Origin: Isoptericola halotolerans
GTDB taxonomy: Bacteria; Actinomycetota; Actinomycetes; Actinomycetales; Cellulomonadaceae
Length of the DNA stretch: 64,000 nt
Reading direction: 5' to 3'
Assembly (NCBI RefSeq): GCF_003003075.1
Contig: NZ_PVTX01000011.1
Span: 1 to 64,000, forward strand
Shown here: positions 33,736 through 42,300 of the stretch, piece after piece
Layout: each line of letters opens with the position of its first letter
Numbering within the stretch: the first letter of the stretch is position 1
Made by a program: the position numbers and the translations under genes
Notes under the pieces: generated by a model
Told to the model about the DNA's origin: nothing
What the model saw: the letters and a program-made list of their open reading frames with translations, nothing else
The model's database searches: none

Positions 33736-34566
33736 TCAGGGCCCTTCCATGATGCGGCGGCGCAGCGCGCCCGAGACGGCGTCGACGACCATCGTGGTGA
33801 CGACCACGACGATCAGCAGCATGCCGACGGTGTCCCAGGCACGATAGTTCGTGTAGTTCGCCAGCATGCTGCCGATGCCGCCCGCGCCGACGATGCCGAG
33901 CACGGCGGACATGCGGATGTTGATCTCGAACCGGTAGAGCGCGAACGACAGCAGCGCGGGCAGCGCGGCCGGCCACAGCGCCCAGCGGATCACGGCGGTG
34001 CGTCCGCCGCCGGCCGCGCGCACGGCGTCCGCGGCGCCGTCGCGCAGGGTCTCGATCGTCTCGTAGGTCCACTTGCCCTGGGTGCCGATCCCGGCGATGC
34101 CCAGCGCCAGCGCTCCGGTGAACGGCGTCAGCCCGGTGACGGTGAGCAGGACGAGCGCGATGATCACCTCGGGCACGGCGCGGATGACAGCGAAGACACC
34201 GCGCAGGGCCAGGCGCAGCCAGGCCGGGCCGACGCCGTCGGCGGCGAGCATGCCGAGCGGGATCGACACGACCACGCAGAGCAGAGCGCCCAGCCAGGCC
34301 ATGGAGATCGAGCGCCACATCTCGAACAGGGCGCGCGGCAGGCGCGACCAGTCCGGATCGGCGAACATCAGCACGCCGTACTCCCCGACGGCGGCGGGCA
34401 GGCCGCGCAGCTCGGCCCACTCGACGTCGAGGGTGGTGACGGACACGAGGAGCACGAGGCCGACGACGGCGGTCGCGACGGTCTGCGCGAGGCGCGACGG
34501 GCGCGGGGGCAGGACGACGGCGGGGCTCGTCGTCGTGCGGGTCCGGTTCTCCAGCGTGTCGCTCAT
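33736..34566 (-). CDS. phnE: Phosphonate-type ABC transporter permease (second PhnE)
   Basis: 276 residues with about six membrane helices. The BPD_transp_1 coupling-loop signature appears in the EAA-like region around ETLRDGAADAVRAAGGGRTAV, followed by [18 protein letters not shown], which is diagnostic of PhnE proteins. Paired with a second permease of the same family; the ATGA overlap with it shows coupling. A GGAGG site precedes the ATG. Function depends on an ATPase and binding protein that are not intact here. Confidence 0.9.
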   Translation of the reverse strand: MSDTLENRTRTTTSPAVVLPPRPSRLAQTVATAVVGLVLLVSVTTLDVEWAELRGLPAAVGEYGVLMFADPDWSRLPRALFEMWRSISMAWLGALLCVVVSIPLGMLAADGVGPAWLRLALRGVFAVIRAVPEVIIALVLLTVTGLTPFTGALALGIAGIGTQGKWTYETIETLRDGAADAVRAAGGGRTAVIRWALWPAALPALLSFALYRFEINIRMSAVLGIVGAGGIGSMLANYTNYRAWDTVGMLLIVVVVTTMVVDAVSGALRRRIMEGP

Positions 34567-35387
34567 GCGAGCCTCCGGCGCAGCAGGTGGGACGCGGCTT
34601 CGATGATCAGCACCACGACGAGGATCTCGAGGATGATCACCGAGACGTCGCCGTAGGCGAAGAAGCCGAACCGTTCGTCGAGGAGCCGGCCGATGCCGCC
34701 CGCGCCGACGATGCCGAGGATCGCCGAGATGCGGACGTTCAGCTCGAGCGCGTAGAGCCACTGGTTGGCGAAGAGCGGGAGGTTCTGGGGCAGGCCGAGG
34801 CCGCGGTTCATCTGGTGCTGGGTGGCGCCGCCGGCGCGGGCCGCCCCGAGGTACGGGTGGTCGGCGGAGTCGATGGCCTCGGAGACGAGCTTGACGACGA
34901 TCCCGACGTCGAACAGCACGAGCGTGAGCAGGCCGGGCAGCGCGCCGACGCCGACCATGGCGACGAGGATGGTCGCCCAGACGAGGTCGGGCACGGCGCG
35001 GATCACGTTGATCACGGCCCGCACCGCCATGCGGGTCGGGGTGTGCGGGTTGGTGGGGCGCGCGGCCCAGAGGGTGAGCGGCACCGACAGCGCCGCGGCG
35101 ATCGCGGCGCCGACGAACGCCATCTGCAGCGTCTCCAGCATCGGCTGGATGGTGCGCGGGACGAACGCCCAGTTCGGCTGCAGCAGCGCGGAGAGGTTGG
35201 CGGCGCCGCGGCGCCAGTTCTGGGCGATGGCGCCCAGGTCGATCTCGACGCCGCCGATCGCGGGCAGGCAGGTCGCCACGGTGAACGCCGCGAGGGCGCT
35301 GACGATCGCCGTGCGGCGCGGCCAGATGCGCGGCCGCGGCGGGAGCTCGAAGCGGGTGGCGGGTACCGCCGTCGTGCCGGGGGTCAT
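34563..35387 (-). CDS. phnE: Phosphonate-type ABC transporter permease (first PhnE)
   Basis: 274 residues, about six membrane helices. Family features: [40 protein letters not shown], a coupling loop [20 protein letters not shown] and [20 protein letters not shown]. Together with the next gene it would form a heterodimeric channel for phosphonate or phosphite. Its start overlaps the stop of the truncated phnC by four bases, proving original operon membership. Confidence 0.9.
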
Positions 35388-35842
35388 GTGCGGTCCCCGA
35401 GGCGGTCCTGCGGGCGGATGCGGCGGCCGTAGATCTGCTCGAAGTCGGCCTCGGTGGCCTCGGCGGCGGGGCCGTCGTAGACGACCTCACCGCCGCGCAG
35501 GCCGATCATGCGGCGCGTGTACTGCCGGGCGAGGTCCATGAGGTGCAGGTTGACCAGCACGGTGAGGTGGTGGTCGGCGTTGATGCGCTCCAGCTCCCCC
35601 ATCACGGCGTGCGCGGTGGGCGGGTCGAGGCTGGCGACGGGTTCGTCGGCGAGCATGATGCTCGGCTCCTGGGACAGCGCCCGCGCGATGGCGACGCGCT
35701 GCTGCTGCCCGCCGGACAGGGACCCGGCGCGCGTCCAGACCTTGTCGAGCATGCCGACCATGTCCAGGGCCGCGAGGGCGACGTCGCGGTCGTGGGCGGT
35801 CGGTATGCCGAGGAGCCCGCGCCCAAGGCCGTGGGACACAAC
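35384..35842 (-). pseudogene. phnC: Truncated phosphonate ABC transporter ATPase (phnC remnant)
   Basis: About 152 residues of an ATPase that should have about 260. It retains the ABC signature [16 protein letters not shown], Walker [13 protein letters not shown] and the switch His region ([11 protein letters not shown]). Everything upstream of [16 protein letters not shown] is missing, including Walker A and the Q-loop, so it cannot hydrolyse ATP. The break coincides with the fall in GC content that marks the island. No other piece of phnC, and no phnD binding-protein gene, is in the window. The open frame running to 35911 into the island is a chance extension. Confidence 0.85.
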
Positions 35843-35959
35843 GACTATCGCGACGAACAGCCCCCCTGCATACGACGCATCAGAGTACGCTCGGCTCGCC
35901 GAGGTCTTCAAACCCAGCGTTCAGGTTCGCGCCGGACTATCCGATCGCAGGTACCGCGG

Positions 35960-36877
35960 CTAGATCAATTTCCTGCCAACGTGTGCAACTACAATCTTGC
36001 GCTCGTCCGCTGCGAGCCTAAAATAGACGCGTCCCGGGCCGGGCGTAAAGCGAGAGTGCAGATCGAAGGTGTGAACTCGTTGGTCAACGTCGAGGAAGTC
36101 AAAGATTCCGCTCCGACGTCTGACCTCATGTTCAGGTGTTACTTTGGATAACCAGAGCGGAGCTGGTCGCTCTTCCGGATCCCATTCGATTGCAGCACGA
36201 TTGATCAGATAAAGTTGTTTTGCGACCGGCTCGACCCATGAGCGTTCGAGGGAAATCAATTGTCCCTCTACTCCAGGCAGGAAGCGGAGGTACGGATAGA
36301 ACTCGTCGCGACTATTCCAAACCTGATGTCCAGTAGTGACATCAGATAGTCCAAACTTCGCTATCCAATCCAGATGGGGTGAGAGATGAGTGACGCGAGA
36401 CAGGTTGCGGACCGTGACACGGTCCTCGACGACATCGATCTCACCGACATCCCGTTCAACGAGCCGGCTACGATGAATCGGGACCGCCGAACTTGCCCAT
36501 TCTCCCCTATCGTCGAGTGAGAAAGCAATTCCATCATAAATATGTGCCGCCCCGAGACCAGCAGCGACCTTGCCTCTACAGACGTACTCGACCCCTGACT
36601 CATCCGAAGAAACAGGCCTACTAATCGGAGCCCTATTGGCACGGGTTAGCAGCCAGCGTCCCAGGTCCCGGTTCTTGGGCTTGCGCAACCAATCTCGGAA
36701 CTTGTAGTTCCTTGCAACATCGTGTTCGAGTATCGACGGAGCAACGACTACTAGCCCTGGCCTCCGCTTCGAAACTTCACGTACGGCTCGACAAACCTCG
36801 CCGACGGCTACGTCTGCGTCAGTGGGATCACGATCGTCGTTCATCGCCAGTTCATTGTGAAAAGCAATAATCTGCAC
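35960..36877 (-). CDS. Unrecognised protein with RelE-like C-terminal segment (third cassette gene)
   Basis: 305 residues, soluble. I do not recognise a family for the main body, which starts QIIAFHNELAMNDDRDPTDA and contains a basic segment FRDWLRKPKNRDLGRWLLT. The last 45 residues (FDLHSRFTPGPGRVYFRLAA, then IVVAHVGRKL) recall a small RelE/ParE-like beta-sheet domain often attached to defence-associated proteins. GTG 36877 has a GGAGG site six bases upstream; the in-frame ATG at 36904 lies before that site, so it is rejected. It follows the ATPase gene by 51 bases in the same operon and is the best candidate for the effector or a target sensor. Confidence 0.7.
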   Translation of the reverse strand: MQIIAFHNELAMNDDRDPTDADVAVGEVCRAVREVSKRRPGLVVVAPSILEHDVARNYKFRDWLRKPKNRDLGRWLLTRANRAPISRPVSSDESGVEYVCRGKVAAGLGAAHIYDGIAFSLDDRGEWASSAVPIHRSRLVERDVGEIDVVEDRVTVRNLSRVTHLSPHLDWIAKFGLSDVTTGHQVWNSRDEFYPYLRFLPGVEGQLISLERSWVEPVAKQLYLINRAAIEWDPEERPAPLWLSKVTPEHEVRRRSGIFDFLDVDQRVHTFDLHSRFTPGPGRVYFRLAADERKIVVAHVGRKLI

Positions 36878-36928
36878 GAGATGCCTCCAAACGTGCGGTC
36901 GCATAGCTGTATCACAAAATTGCGGAGA

Positions 36929-38065
36929 TTACTCCAGGAGGCTTTCGATCGAATAGTCCCACTCGTCAAAGAATCCTTCTGGCCATGCCGAGATCATTCC
37001 ATCCTCACCGATCTCAGGGCTGGTGATTGAAATTGCACCACCGTCTCCAGGCTGAAAATAGTGCAGCTGCGTAGAACTCGCCGCGAGGTGCCGATTCTTT
37101 ACTGCGAGACGGACGCCGTTTAAAACGTGATCACTATGTGTCTCTATAAGTACCTGCGTCCCCGTCGCAGCTGCGGCGCATGCGAGGCGAGCCATTGCCG
37201 ACTGGCCGCGAGGGTGCAAGTGGGCTTCTGGATTCTCAAGTAGCAGAAGCGCTCCGCTTCGAGCTGCCAGCAGAGACACGATAATTGGCAAGGAATATGC
37301 GAGGCCAAAGCCGACGTTCGTTGGGCGACGAGCGAGGCTAACCGCCGCACCGGGAGATGAATTGCGAAAACCCAGCCTGACCAAGTCGGTATTGTCGATG
37401 GCCTCGGCAGAAATTTGAACCCCAGGGCATATCTCACCCAGCCAGGCATCCACTTGCGCGAGAAGTCGGTTCGATTGACCATGCGGATGAAGCCGGGGTC
37501 CGTGCAATATCAAGTCATCCTGATGCTCGCGGAGATAGTCACCAGTGTATTCACCGCGTGTGCCGAGAAAATGTTGTTCCGTGGCCGCTCGGTAAGATCT
37601 CGGATAAGTCGTCGATGGGTTAACTCTATCAGCTCTGAGGTACTGGAACACGTGGTCCGGAACAGTGAAGTCGAGACTTTCCACGCCATCATTGGAAGCT
37701 CCGATCAGAGTGAAAGGAAGCGCGTCGCTTGCCGCGACGTATTCGGCCAAAATTCCGGCACGCTTTCCGCCTTGGAAGTGTGTGAGTATCTCGATAGTTG
37801 GCGGTTTTGATGTGTGGCCTTCATGAAGGACGTCTCGGCCAGTGCCCAGTTCCACGTACTCGCCGTTGAGAGGTACTCTGTCGGAGTACCTGCCGGGGGA
37901 GAAGTTCTCGGGGAGCCGATCAAGAGCTTGCTGAAGCAGGCCGAAGGCCTGCAGTACTGTGCTTTTTCCGGAAGAGTTTAGCCCAGTTAGAAGCGTGAGC
38001 GGCTTCAAGGCGATCTTGCTGTGCGAGAAGGCTTTGAAGTTCGTAAGTTCTATGGCGTTGATCAT
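36929..38065 (-). CDS. AAA/ABC-type ATPase, DUF3696 family (second cassette gene)
   Basis: 378 residues of SMC/OLD-like ATPase. N-terminal INAIELTNFKAFSHSKI, Walker A GLNSSGKST (near 29-37), Walker B/D-loop ALLLLENPEAHLHPRGQS (near 290), and the His switch IETHSDHVLNGVR. The C-terminus carries the DUF3696 signature ISAWPEGFFDEWDYSIESLL. There is no TOPRIM domain, unlike OLD nucleases, so any nuclease activity must come from another subunit. Its ATG overlaps the DUF262 stop (ATGA). GC is about 50%. ATPases of this kind are common sensors or motors in bacterial defence systems. Confidence 0.88.
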   Translation of the reverse strand: MINAIELTNFKAFSHSKIALKPLTLLTGLNSSGKSTVLQAFGLLQQALDRLPENFSPGRYSDRVPLNGEYVELGTGRDVLHEGHTSKPPTIEILTHFQGGKRAGILAEYVAASDALPFTLIGASNDGVESLDFTVPDHVFQYLRADRVNPSTTYPRSYRAATEQHFLGTRGEYTGDYLREHQDDLILHGPRLHPHGQSNRLLAQVDAWLGEICPGVQISAEAIDNTDLVRLGFRNSSPGAAVSLARRPTNVGFGLAYSLPIIVSLLAARSGALLLLENPEAHLHPRGQSAMARLACAAAATGTQVLIETHSDHVLNGVRLAVKNRHLAASSTQLHYFQPGDGGAISITSPEIGEDGMISAWPEGFFDEWDYSIESLLE

Positions 38066-39243
38066 GATGTCATCTCGTTAAACAAGTTGTCGATTGCCTT
38101 GAAGCGCTCGCGAACTTTCTCGACGCTTCCTGTCCCAACTGATATTGCGTTGTAGAAATCCTCGTCTTGAAGAAGCTCTCGGAACCGCATATCTACTTCT
38201 TCTCGATTTGAAGTGAGGAGGTCAAGGTTCTTCTGGGACAGCCGGGCTAAGTTCACGGATATCGTCTCGAAGAGAGCCTTGTTGATTGGAAGTCTGCGGT
38301 TCGGTTCCCAGTTGTTTAGCTTGCGAAACGCGTTTGTCTCAAAGATGCGTGCGGCTGCGTTCATCGAGCGTCGGAAACTGTCACCGAGCTTCTCATGATG
38401 CTCGACTGTTGTATGGTTGATCAATTCCATTGCATCACGAAGGAACCCGTCAAGGTCTCCTCGATAGTGTTCGTCTGGGTCAAGCATCAAGAACGCAAGG
38501 AATCGCAGTACCATCTCGCGATCCGCCATGCGTGTCGTTCGGATGCTCCCGTCAGTTGCGTGTAGAAACTCTGCAGACCGAGAAAGTTCTGCGAGCAGTT
38601 GTCTAGCGGGCCCAGGTATTAGGGCGTGTCGCAACTCCTGGGCAGTCAGTGGCAAGCCACCTGTGTTTATTCGGGCAAAGATGTTGAACTTTACTGGCTC
38701 GGGCGTTCCGGCACGAATTAGGTGTACGAGGAGTTCGGCCTCGTCAATGCGGGTCTGCAGGTTGCCTGGCAGGTCGCTATATGTTGCCCCCTCGTACTGG
38801 CCCAGATACTCTAGGCCAGTAAGGCGCAGTGTTTCGAGGTTTGGGTAGTCCTTGCGGATGAGGTCGGGTTGCACAAAACGCGCGATAGTAGTCAGTCGCT
38901 GGATCCCATCGACCACCACCCAGCTATCCTCACCGCTCTCGGCCGCGTATAGCGTCGGTAGTGGAATCCTTAGTAGTAGTGACTCAATGAGCCTACTCTG
39001 AGCGACGTCGGTCCAGATTCCGGCTCGGCGTTGAAAGTCAGGTGTCAAATCAAGGACCCCGCGGCGGAGCCGAGCAAGTAGTAGACTTACAGTCGGTGTG
39101 CGTGTTACTACGTCGATTTTCGCCGGGTCGAAGGGTTCGTCAATTGTCTCGTTGTTCGGGTCGTCTTCTTCGGCCTCAACGCCGGTGCTATGGCCGAGGG
39201 AGTCGTATTCGACAGGAAGATCTTCGATATTTCGATTCTGCAT
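38062..39243 (-). CDS. DUF262 (ParB/sulfiredoxin-fold) protein (first cassette gene)
   Basis: 393 residues. An acidic N-terminal extension (about 1-40) is followed by the DUF262 core: LTPDFQRRAGIWTDVAQSRL, LLRIPLPTLYAAE, and the nucleotide-site motif VVVDGIQRLTTI (the DGxQR form). FARINTGGLPLTAQELRHAL is also typical. The rest is helical; there is no DUF1524 HNH nuclease as in GmrSD or BrxU enzymes. The DUF262 domain can bind and hydrolyse NTPs to license a nuclease. ATG follows AGGGGAA. First gene of the cassette operon, about 50% GC. Confidence 0.88.
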   Translation of the reverse strand: MQNRNIEDLPVEYDSLGHSTGVEAEEDDPNNETIDEPFDPAKIDVVTRTPTVSLLLARLRRGVLDLTPDFQRRAGIWTDVAQSRLIESLLLRIPLPTLYAAESGEDSWVVVDGIQRLTTIARFVQPDLIRKDYPNLETLRLTGLEYLGQYEGATYSDLPGNLQTRIDEAELLVHLIRAGTPEPVKFNIFARINTGGLPLTAQELRHALIPGPARQLLAELSRSAEFLHATDGSIRTTRMADREMVLRFLAFLMLDPDEHYRGDLDGFLRDAMELINHTTVEHHEKLGDSFRRSMNAAARIFETNAFRKLNNWEPNRRLPINKALFETISVNLARLSQKNLDLLTSNREEVDMRFRELLQDEDFYNAISVGTGSVEKVRERFKAIDNLFNEMTS

Positions 39244-39316
39244 GTAGTTCCCCTAGTGGTTGCCCTAGCCGCCTGAGGCCCTGGCGGCAAGTTAGCTCCG
39301 TACGCGGACGCCGCAT

Positions 39317-39337
39317 GTACTGGCTCCGCCAGCGTAC
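39317..39337 (-). terminator. Possible short hairpin after metH
   Basis: GTACTGGC and GCCA-GC-GTAC form a stem with one two-base bulge around TCC, about 50 bases beyond the metH stop. Weak support. Confidence 0.3.
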
Positions 39338-39388
39338 CGAGTGTGGCTTGACCGTGTGGGTTCAACGCGCATGGCAGCGTGAAGCGGA

Positions 39389-42300
39389 CTAGACCGAGAA
39401 GTACTTCGCCTCAGGATGATGCAGCACGAACGCGTCCGTCGACTGCTCGGGGTGCAGCTGCAGCTCGTCGCTCAGCGTCACTCCGACCCGCTCGGGCCGG
39501 AGCAGCTCGACGACCTTCCGCCGGTCTTCCATGTCCGGGCATGCCGGGTAGCCGAGCGACATCCGCGCACCGCGGTACTCCAGCTTGAACATGCCTTCGA
39601 CGTTCTCCGGGTCCTCGTCGGCGAACCCGAGCTCGGACCGCACGCGCGCGTGCCAGAACTCCGCCAGCGCCTCGGTGAGCTGGACGGACAGCCCGTGCAG
39701 CTCCATGTACTCGCGGTACTTGTTCGCCTCGAACAGCTTCGCCGTGTACGCCGAGACCGGCTCACCGACGGTCGCGAGCTGGATCGGCAGCACGTCGAAC
39801 TGCCCCGTCTCCTCGACCCACGACTTCGGCCGCACGAAGTCGGCCAGGCACAGGTGCCGGTCGCGCTTCTGGCGGGGGAAGGTGAAGCGCAACCGCTCGG
39901 TCCCCACGGGGCCGCCAGAACCGCCGTCGGGCGCCCCGATCTCGCCGGACGGCCCGGTCATGCCGGGCCCGTGGTGGGCGACCACGATGTCGTCGCCCTC
40001 GGACCACACGGGGAAGTACCCGTACACCACGGTGGGGTCCATGACCTGGTCCCGTCGGATGGTCGACATCCACTCGGCCAGGCGCGGACGCCCCTCGGTC
40101 TCGACGAGCTCCTCGTAGGAGGCACCATCCTCGCCGCGGCCCGGCTTCAGCCCCCACTGCCCCATGAACGTCGCGCGCTCGTCGAGGTATGCGGCGTAGT
40201 CGGCGAGCTGGATGCCCTTGACCACGCGCGTGCCCCAGAACGGGGGAGCGGGGACGGGGTTGTCGTCGGCGACGTCGGAGCGCGCCGGCAGGTCCTCGGG
40301 CGCGGTCTCGGTCACCTTGACGACGTTGTGCCGGCGCTTGCGCAGCGCGGGCAGACCGACGTCGTCGACCGACGCCCCGCGAGCCACGGCCACGAGCGGC
40401 TCCATGAGCCGCAGACCTTCGAACGCGTCGCGGGCGTACCGCACGACGCCGGGGAACTGCGAGGCGAGGTCGTCCTCGACAAAAGTCCGCGTCAGGGCCG
40501 CGCCACCGAGCAGGATCGGCCACTTCTGCGCGAGCCCGCGCGACTCCAGCTCGGCGAGGTTCTCCTTCATCACCACGGTCGACTTCACCAGCAGCCCGGA
40601 CATGCCGATGACGTCGGCGTCGTGCTCCTCGGCGGCCTCGATCATCGCGGAGATCGGCTGCTTGATGCCGATGTTGACCACGGTGAAGCCGTTATTGGTC
40701 AGGATGATGTCCACGAGGTTCTTGCCGATGTCGTGCACGTCGCCGCGGACGGTGGCCAGCACGATCGTGCCCTTGGTCTGCTCGTCGGCGCCCTCGACCT
40801 TCTCCATGTGCGGCTCGAGCAGCGCCACGGCGGCCTTCATCACCTCGGCGGACTGCAGCACGAACGGCAGCTGCATCTGCCCGGAGCCGAACAGCTCGCC
40901 GACCACCTTCATGCCGCCCAGGAGGTGGGTGTTGACGATGTCGAGGGCCTTCATGCCGTCGGCCAGGGCCGTCTCGAGGTCGCCCTCGAGGCCCTTGCGG
41001 GCGCCGTCGATGATCCGGCGTTCGAGGCGCTCGCCCACCGGCAGCGCCTCGAGCTCCGCGGCGCGCTGGTCGCGCAGCGCCGCGGAGTCCACGCCTGAGA
41101 ACGTCTCCAGCAGGTGGGACAGCGGGTCGTGCGTGAGGTTGCCCTCGTCGTCGTAGACCCGCCGGTCCCACACGAGGTTCTCCGCGGCCTCCCACTGCTC
41201 GTCGGGGATCGCGGTGCGCGGCAGGATCTTCGCGGCGTGCACGATGGCGGAGTCCAGCCCGGCCTGCACGGCCTCGTGGAGGAACACCGAGTTGAGCACC
41301 GTGCGGGCGGCCGGGTTGAGGCCGAACGACACGTTCGACACGCCCAGCGTGGTGTGCACGGTGGGGTAGCGGCGGGTGAGCTCGCGGATCGCCTCGATCG
41401 TCTCGATGGCGTCGCGGCGGGTCTCCTCCTGGCCGGTCGCGATGGGGAAGGTGAGGGTGTCGACGATGATGTCGTCAACCCGCATGCCCCAGTCGTCCAC
41501 GAGCGTGTCGATGAGCCGGGACGCGATGGCGACCTTCTTGTCCGCGGTGCGCGCCTGACCCTCCTCGTCGATGGTCAGGGCGATGACGGCGGCCCCGTGC
41601 TCCATGACGGCCGGCATGACGCGCTGGAACCGCGACCCGGGCCCGTCGCCGTCCTCGAAGTTCACCGAGTTCACCACGGCGCGCCCGCCCACGAGCTCCA
41701 GCCCGGCGCGGATCACCTCCGGCTCGGTGGAGTCGATCACCAGCGGCAGGGTGGAGGCCGAGGCCAACCGGGAGACGACCTCCCGGACGTCCGCGACGCC
41801 GTCGCGCCCCACGTAGTCGACGCAGACGTCCAGCAGGTGCGCGCCGTCGCGGGTCTGGGCGCGGGCGATGTCGACGACGTCGTCCCACCGGGACTCCAGC
41901 ATCGCCTCGCGGAACGCCTTGGACCCGTTCGCGTTGGTCCGCTCACCGATCGCCAGGTACGAGGCGTCCTGAGACAGGTCGGTGTGCGAGTACAGGGAGG
42001 CGACGCCGTTCTCCCGCTCCACCTCGCGCGGCCGCAGCGCGCGTCCGCGCACCGCCTCGACCACCTGGCGCAGGTGCTCCGGCGTCGTGCCGCAGCAGCC
42101 CCCGACCAGGCCGAGGGAGAACTCGTCGACGAACTGCGTGTGTGCTGCCGCCAGCTCCTCGGGCGAGAGCGGGTAGACGGCGCCGTCGGGACCGAGCTCG
42201 GGCAGCCCGGCGTTCGGCATGCACGTCACGGGGACGTCGGCGTGCCGAGCGAGGTGGCGCAGGTGCTCGCTCATCTGCTCGGGACCGGTGGCGCAGTTCA

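What the first reader, a model, noticed from the sequence alone, without database searches (positions are those of the whole stretch)
35843..39388. Three-gene DUF262 / DUF3696-ATPase / unknown cassette on a low-GC island
Seen: one minus-strand operon, ATGA overlap between genes 1 and 2, 51 bases between 2 and 3, GC about 50% inside a 70-75% GC chromosome. Known: DUF262 domains and SMC/OLD-like ATPases recur in anti-phage systems, and multi-gene systems containing such an ATPase have been reported (I recall Menshen, but I am not sure of its exact domain set). Inference: this is a complete, mobile defence system, either a divergent Menshen-like type or an undescribed one. It has no HNH, TOPRIM or PD-(D/E)xK nuclease that I can see, so the effector mechanism is open.
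Basis: partly seen in the sequence, partly recalled or inferred. Interest (0 to 1): 0.87.

Follow-up and report, generated by a model that had tools for sequence, protein, structure and literature searches.

The report
Menshen anti-phage operon with RelE-like effector
The three genes are a complete copy of a known bacterial anti-phage system called Menshen, at a spot where some sister species keep other defence-like genes, and its third protein looks like an RNA-cutting RelE-type toxin, which suggests how the system may stop a phage infection.

Summary
In detail: three overlapping or adjacent minus-strand genes (38062-39243, 36929-38065, 35960-36904), 54% GC against about 73% around them. All three match PADLOC's Menshen models over nearly their full length (NsnA E 1.2e-136, NsnB 1e-112, NsnC 2.1e-82). 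In 11 of 12 NsnC loci elsewhere the same trio stands in the same order, and the proteins diverge in step (r 0.96-0.97). It is a new member of a known system.

It replaced host DNA beside metH, where at least 4 of 20 relatives carry other defence- or toxin-like genes, one of them Qat. The island carries no mobility gene that I could recognise.

Best reading: NsnA senses, NsnB relays, NsnC cuts RNA. Untested; a 2025 paper on Menshen's domains could not be read.

The parts
38062..39243 (-). nsnA: 393 aa, DUF262 / GmrS-type (ParB-like) protein, presumed sensor/switch
   Evidence: PADLOC NsnA 1.2e-136 over residues 11-392; Pfam GmrSD_N 2.5e-21
38896..38910 (-). nsnA DGIQR motif (residues 112-116), counterpart of the GmrS DGQQR nucleotide-pocket motif
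   Evidence: invariant in 12 of 12 aligned rows; role of DGQQR from passages of PMC10952713
36929..38065 (-). nsnB: 378 aa, OLD/ABC-type ATPase with C-terminal DUF3696; no TOPRIM among Pfam matches
   Evidence: PADLOC NsnB 1e-112 over residues 1-377; AAA_15 1.3e-22, DUF3696 4.5e-11
37961..37984 (-). nsnB Walker A (GLNSSGKS, residues 28-35)
   Evidence: G28, G33, K34, S35 invariant in 12 of 12 rows
37226..37249 (-). nsnB Walker B region (LLLLENPE, residues 273-280)
   Evidence: E277 and E280 invariant in 12 of 12 rows
35960..36904 (-). nsnC: 314 aa (alternative GTG start at 36877), presumed effector
   Evidence: PADLOC NsnC 2.1e-82 over residues 12-313
35963..36298 (-). nsnC C-terminal RelE-like domain (residues 203-314)
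36050..36058 (-). nsnC H283 to R285; H283 and R285 at the positions of RelE K52 and K54
   Evidence: invariant 12 of 12, offset 231; RelE residues from passages of PMC2807027
36029..36031 (-). nsnC R292, at the position of RelE R61
35969..35971 (-). nsnC K312, at the position of RelE R81
35823..39392 (.). foreign segment: window DNA without blastn match in the syntenic region of three sister genomes
   Evidence: matches of L090, L091, L092 stop at 35822 and resume at 39398, 39393, 39400
35384..35822 (-). truncated phnC (phosphonate-type ABC ATPase; name from my reading of the sequence): 3' part kept, 5' part replaced by the island
   Evidence: phnC of 273-275 aa, then phnD and a HAD-type gene, in three sister genomes; phnD has no match in the window's own genome, without a positive control

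Best explanation
This is a complete Menshen anti-phage operon (nsnA-nsnB-nsnC) that arrived by replacement of host DNA at a variable site beside metH where some relatives keep other defence-like genes. Most likely mechanism: NsnA, a DUF262/ParB-like nucleotide-binding protein, recognises phage DNA or a phage-induced DNA state; NsnB, an OLD/ABC-type ATPase without a recognisable nuclease domain, uses ATP to relay that signal; NsnC is the effector, an N-terminal docking or regulatory part (residues 1 to about 190) joined to a C-terminal RelE-type nuclease (203-314) that, once activated, cuts RNA, probably mRNA on the ribosome, and stops translation. Shown by calls: identity, completeness, conserved motifs, correlated divergence, the site, a predicted RelE-like fold, invariant basic residues at the RelE active-site positions. 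Inferred: sensing, relay, RNA as target, ribosome dependence, and any abortive outcome.
Against: No activity was tested. Foldseek gave no E below 1e-3, and VIA Z stays under 8, a level that the tool says can mean only a common arrangement. One of the five E. coli RelE rows (4v7k) ends in another register (offset 229), which would match only one of the four positions; the ranges give end points only, so the absence of gaps is assumed. Profile-profile comparison of the NsnC C-terminus with 11 ParE/RelE-type sequences was not significant (probability 1%), nor was Pfam on 7 C-terminal pieces. NsnC ends at the counterpart of RelE residue 83, so Y87 is missing; and in RelE itself K52A and K54A did not lower activity. 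The review PMC10952713 links Menshen with an OLD/TOPRIM nuclease; none was found here. The NsnA model was poor (pLDDT 66.8) and its fold search empty, so the sensor step rests on family knowledge.
Confidence: 0.6

Rival explanations
1. It is Menshen, but the C-terminal RelE-like domain of NsnC is an inactive shared adaptor (for example binding NsnB or ribosomes), and the N-terminal part of NsnC, which differs between systems, is the effector.
For: The N-terminal part is what varies between NsnC types and HEC-07-like proteins while the C-terminal domain is shared; a variable part is often the effector in polymorphic systems. RelE's Y87 is missing.
Against: Four basic positions are invariant in 12 of 12 close homologues. 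In 7 rows (the window's NsnC, one NsnC of another type, five HEC-07-like proteins) the residue aligned to H283 is H in 7, that to R285 basic in 6, that to R292 R in 6 and H in 1, and that to K312 K or H in 7. The N-terminal part gave only scattered low-Z rows and I could name no catalytic motif in it.
Confidence: 0.25
2. It is Menshen working as a DNA-targeting, restriction-like system: NsnA recognises modified phage DNA as GmrS/BrxU do, and NsnB (OLD-like) or NsnC cuts DNA.
For: DUF262 proteins of GmrSD, BrxU and SspE act on modified DNA, and Dazbog's DUF262 is linked to methylated DNA (passages of PMC10952713); NsnB's profile matches the OLD-family structure 6p74 (E 4.5e-11, best stretch residues 1-44).
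Against: No DUF1524/HNH in NsnA and no TOPRIM in NsnB at Pfam E<=1; the only nuclease-like fold found is RelE-type.
Confidence: 0.12
3. An undescribed system only distantly similar to Menshen.
For: The third gene has no Pfam or NCBIfam match.
Against: All three genes match the Menshen models nearly end to end at 2.1e-82 or better, with the operon order kept in 11 of 12 loci.
Confidence: 0.03

Closest known systems
Menshen (NsnA-NsnB-NsnC; PADLOC-DB models PDLC03877, PDLC03878, PDLC03879)
   Same: All three proteins match nearly end to end, in one operon and in the order A-B-C.
   Different: Nothing in gene content. NsnC is of the PDLC03879 type; G171 pairs similar NsnA/NsnB with an NsnC of the PDLC03914 type, and G430 has a third gene that resembles that type by eye. 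Eleven different NsnC models turned up, so NsnC diversity is already on record. The TOPRIM domain that a review attaches to Menshen was not found here.
RelE/ParE/YoeB/HigB toxin superfamily (structures 4fxe, 2kc8, 2khe)
   Same: Predicted fold of NsnC 203-314 covers the whole RelE domain, and the positions of K52, K54, R61, R81 are invariant basic residues.
   Different: Fused behind an N-terminal part, in an operon with NsnA/NsnB rather than an antitoxin, no Y87, no significant sequence-profile match.
Cami1 (CARF-RelE effector of type III CRISPR; 8phb)
   Different: No CARF match was seen in NsnC; control would come from NsnA/NsnB, not from cyclic oligoadenylate (inference).
HEC-07 (PADLOC candidate defence protein)
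   Same: Five proteins that match HEC-07 models also match NsnC models in their C-terminal part. A profile of those five plus one other-type NsnC aligns with the NsnC C-terminus over 81 columns (hhalign E 4.3e-6, probability 72%).
   Different: Longer, different N-terminal part. In the 13 genomes with only such a C-terminal match, 5 of them scanned against HEC-07, no NsnA or NsnB match lies beside it.
PD-T4-2 and GmrSD / BrxU / SspE
   Same: DUF262 protein: NsnA also matches PD-T4-2_A (2.6e-38, residues 55-388) and carries a DGxQR motif.
   Different: Much weaker than the NsnA match; no DUF1524/HNH nuclease domain in NsnA.

Membership tests
Menshen | nsnA: DUF262 protein | tested here: met
   PDLC03877 1.2e-136, residues 11-392 of 393
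Menshen | nsnB: OLD/ABC-type ATPase with DUF3696 | tested here: met
   PDLC03878 1e-112, residues 1-377 of 378
Menshen | nsnC | tested here: met
   PDLC03879 2.1e-82, residues 12-313 of 314
Menshen | three genes in one operon, order A-B-C | tested here: met
   4-base overlap and 24- or 51-base gap; same order in 11 of 12 related loci
Menshen | protects against phage | not testable with these tools
   needs an infection experiment
RelE superfamily (NsnC C-terminal domain) | RelE fold over the whole domain | tested here: inconclusive
RelE superfamily (NsnC C-terminal domain) | basic residues at the active-site positions (K52, K54, R61, R81 of RelE) | tested here: met
   H283, R285, R292, K312 invariant 12 of 12 at offset 231. 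Holds if the register of 4 of 5 E. coli RelE rows is right and no gap lies between 283 and 312; the row 4v7k ends at offset 229
RelE superfamily (NsnC C-terminal domain) | C-terminal tyrosine Y87 (E. coli RelE) | tested here: not met
   NsnC ends at the counterpart of RelE residue 83; the C-terminal helix is also absent in archaeal RelE (passage of PMC2807027)
RelE superfamily (NsnC C-terminal domain) | significant profile-profile similarity to ParE/RelE sequences | tested here: not met
   hhalign probability 1% against 11 ParE/RelE-type sequences
RelE superfamily (NsnC C-terminal domain) | RNA cleavage | not testable with these tools
   needs biochemistry
GmrSD-type IV restriction | DUF262 domain | tested here: met
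   PF03235 2.5e-21 in NsnA
GmrSD-type IV restriction | DUF1524 nuclease domain | tested here: not met
   no DUF1524 among Pfam matches at E<=1 in the three proteins
OLD / GajA-type nuclease | C-terminal TOPRIM domain in the ATPase protein | tested here: not met
   NsnB has DUF3696 at its C-terminus and no TOPRIM family among Pfam matches at E<=1

The most novel reading that the evidence does not exclude
The effector of this Menshen type is a RelE-family ribonuclease held in a three-protein sensor complex, not in a toxin-antitoxin pair: NsnB's ATPase cycle, triggered through NsnA, frees or positions NsnC to cut mRNA on the ribosome and shut down translation. The same nuclease module, with its His / Arg-or-Lys / Arg / Lys-or-His basic site, is reused in HEC-07-like proteins behind unrelated N-terminal domains.
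Probability: 0.45. Interest if true: 0.6.

Novelty: new member of a known kind. Interest (0 to 1): 0.4.

Why it matters
In the passages that I could read, the effector step of Menshen is not settled. A RelE-like active site in NsnC turns that into a test of four point mutants. It would also link Menshen to HEC-07-like proteins and to Cami1 through one shared type of translation-stopping effector, and it adds a defence-exchange site beside metH in one actinobacterial genus.

Tried and rejected

Rows dropped: the loci L004, L006, L009 and L011 were read in the wrong orientation and not used. In one search the minus-strand ParE loci were misread as well, so its RelE rows are void; one search repeats them with 11 of the 13 loci (L149 and L154 left out). 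In one search the 3' remnant of phnC was translated out of frame by mistake; its blank result is void, those of metH and the permease stand.
Full report
1. What is there. Searches show three minus-strand genes: 38062-39243 (393 aa), 36929-38065 (378 aa, 4-base overlap with the first) and 35960-36904 (314 aa; 24 bases after the second, or 51 with the GTG at codon 10). The block has 54.3% GC against 72.6% and 73.4% in the flanks. Pfam finds GmrSD_N/DUF262 in the first, an AAA ATPase with C-terminal DUF3696 in the second and nothing at E<=1 in the third.

2. What it is. PADLOC's Menshen models match all three nearly end to end: NsnA 1.2e-136, NsnB 1e-112, NsnC 2.1e-82. NsnA also matches PD-T4-2_A (2.6e-38) and a type II restriction model (2.8e-12) through its DUF262 part, and NsnB matches 136 PADLOC families, as ATPases do. 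In PHROGs, NsnA matches phrog_2598 (6.4e-64) and NsnB phrog_21420 (2.9e-38), both of unknown function; NsnC matches none at E<=0.01. PDFQR and DGIQR in NsnA and the checked Walker residues in NsnB are invariant in 12 of 12 rows.

3. Do the genes belong together? An alignment-based scan of the species genome collection gave 12 NsnC loci; 11 have NsnA-NsnB-NsnC in that order and side by side, and one (L029) has an NsnC C-terminal part without the others. Over 14 complete trios (window, L018-L028, L130, L132) pairwise identities of the three proteins correlate at r 0.957-0.967, reached by 0 of 5000 permutations. The window's nearest relative in all three trees is Cellulosimicrobium cellulans (NsnA 62%, NsnB 57%, NsnC 47%). 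Trio GC is below both flanks in 12 of the 13 other trio loci (L025 is level with its left flank), which fits repeated transfer. On a Methylobacterium plasmid the trio follows genes annotated as a Mu transposase C-terminal domain protein and an AAA ATPase.

4. How common. The NsnC model PDLC03879 matches in 17 of 396 genomes of the phylum. In 4 of the 17 (G000, G246, G055, G171) NsnA and NsnB lie beside it; in G171 NsnC is of another type, with only C-terminal likeness to the window's. The other 13 match only in the C-terminal part of the model (from position 173 or later), 12 of them inside open frames of 459-689 aa and one (G290) in a frame of 246 aa. Five of these 13 were scanned with PADLOC; all five match both HEC-07 and NsnC models. 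In the window's genus it is in 1 of 18 genomes. The NsnA model, which is less specific, matches in 120 of 396 genomes of the order. I fetched 12 stretches (11 from that search, plus G171): G484 has the same trio; G430 and G171 have NsnA-NsnB followed by a different third gene; G552 has an nsnA with an internal stop and beside it only a more distant ATPase on the other strand (E 1e-11); the eight weaker ones have no nsnB, one of them showing a fragmentary match at 1.8e-4.

5. Where it sits. Gene names here (metH, phnC, phnD, permeases, HAD-type phosphatase) are my reading of the translations, not a family search. In three sister genomes the region left of metH holds an intact phnC, phnD and a HAD-type gene, then varying cargo, then metH. 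In the window the match to phnC stops at 35822 and resumes at 39393-39400, the end of metH, so the island replaced the 5' part of phnC, phnD and the HAD-type gene. phnD has no match in the window's own genome; that search had no positive control. I fetched the metH flanks of 20 relatives, listed likely genes by a crude codon-bias rule and scanned 10 chosen proteins of 6 of the 20 with PADLOC: QatA, QatC and QatD in G411, PDC-M32A in G403, weak LmuA/ThsA-type matches in G397, nothing at E<=1e-5 in G412, G407 and G414. Pfam adds SIR2_2 for the G397 protein and PIN_3 for a G406 protein. So at least 4 of 20 have defence-like or toxin-like cargo there; the others were scanned in part or not at all. 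In 14 other Menshen or NsnC loci, tblastn found neither metH nor the permease within the stretches held, without a positive control.

7. How it works. NsnA as sensor: DUF262 proteins bind nucleotides and act with modified DNA in GmrSD, BrxU and SspE, and mutating or deleting the DUF262 gene abolished Menshen protection (PMC10952713, passages). NsnB as relay: OLD-like ATPase with intact motifs and no TOPRIM domain found. NsnC as effector: RelE-like nuclease behind a variable N-terminal part. [quoted passage not shown] The steps from sensing to cleavage are inference.

8. Novelty. As a system it is a new member of a known kind. The RelE reading of NsnC was reached here from structure prediction; whether Li et al. 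2025 already state it I could not check.

Noticed in passing
35384-35822: phnC is truncated and phnD was not found elsewhere in the genome (no positive control), while permease genes (33736-35387) remain: the phosphonate-type transporter is probably dead in this strain.
   Followed up: partly
L092 (G411), metH flank: A Qat system (QatA, QatC, QatD matched) sits at the same site beside metH in a sister genome.
   Followed up: yes
L093, L094, L100, L108 metH flanks: Large variable genes beside metH in relatives: a 1026-aa SIR2-like protein (GC 0.55), and 788-aa (GC 0.54), 514-aa and 1970-aa proteins without PADLOC match, possibly undescribed defence genes.
   Followed up: partly
L005 and L012: Proteins with an N-terminal part that looks like a nucleoside deoxyribosyltransferase/SLOG domain (in L005 weak Pfam matches plus an ATP-cone; in L012 by eye) ahead of the NsnC-type C-terminal domain.
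   Followed up: no
L133 (G552): A Menshen-type nsnA with an internal stop and no nsnB of this type on its 5.8-kb contig: probably a decayed copy.
   Followed up: no
L130 (Methylobacterium plasmid NZ_CP043630.1): Menshen trio directly behind Mu-type transposase and AAA ATPase genes, with two recombinase genes next to them, pointing to a transposon as carrier.
   Followed up: no
38062-39243 and 36929-38065: NsnA and NsnB have strong matches to phage protein families of unknown function (phrog_2598, phrog_21420), so relatives of both travel in phages or prophages.
   Followed up: no
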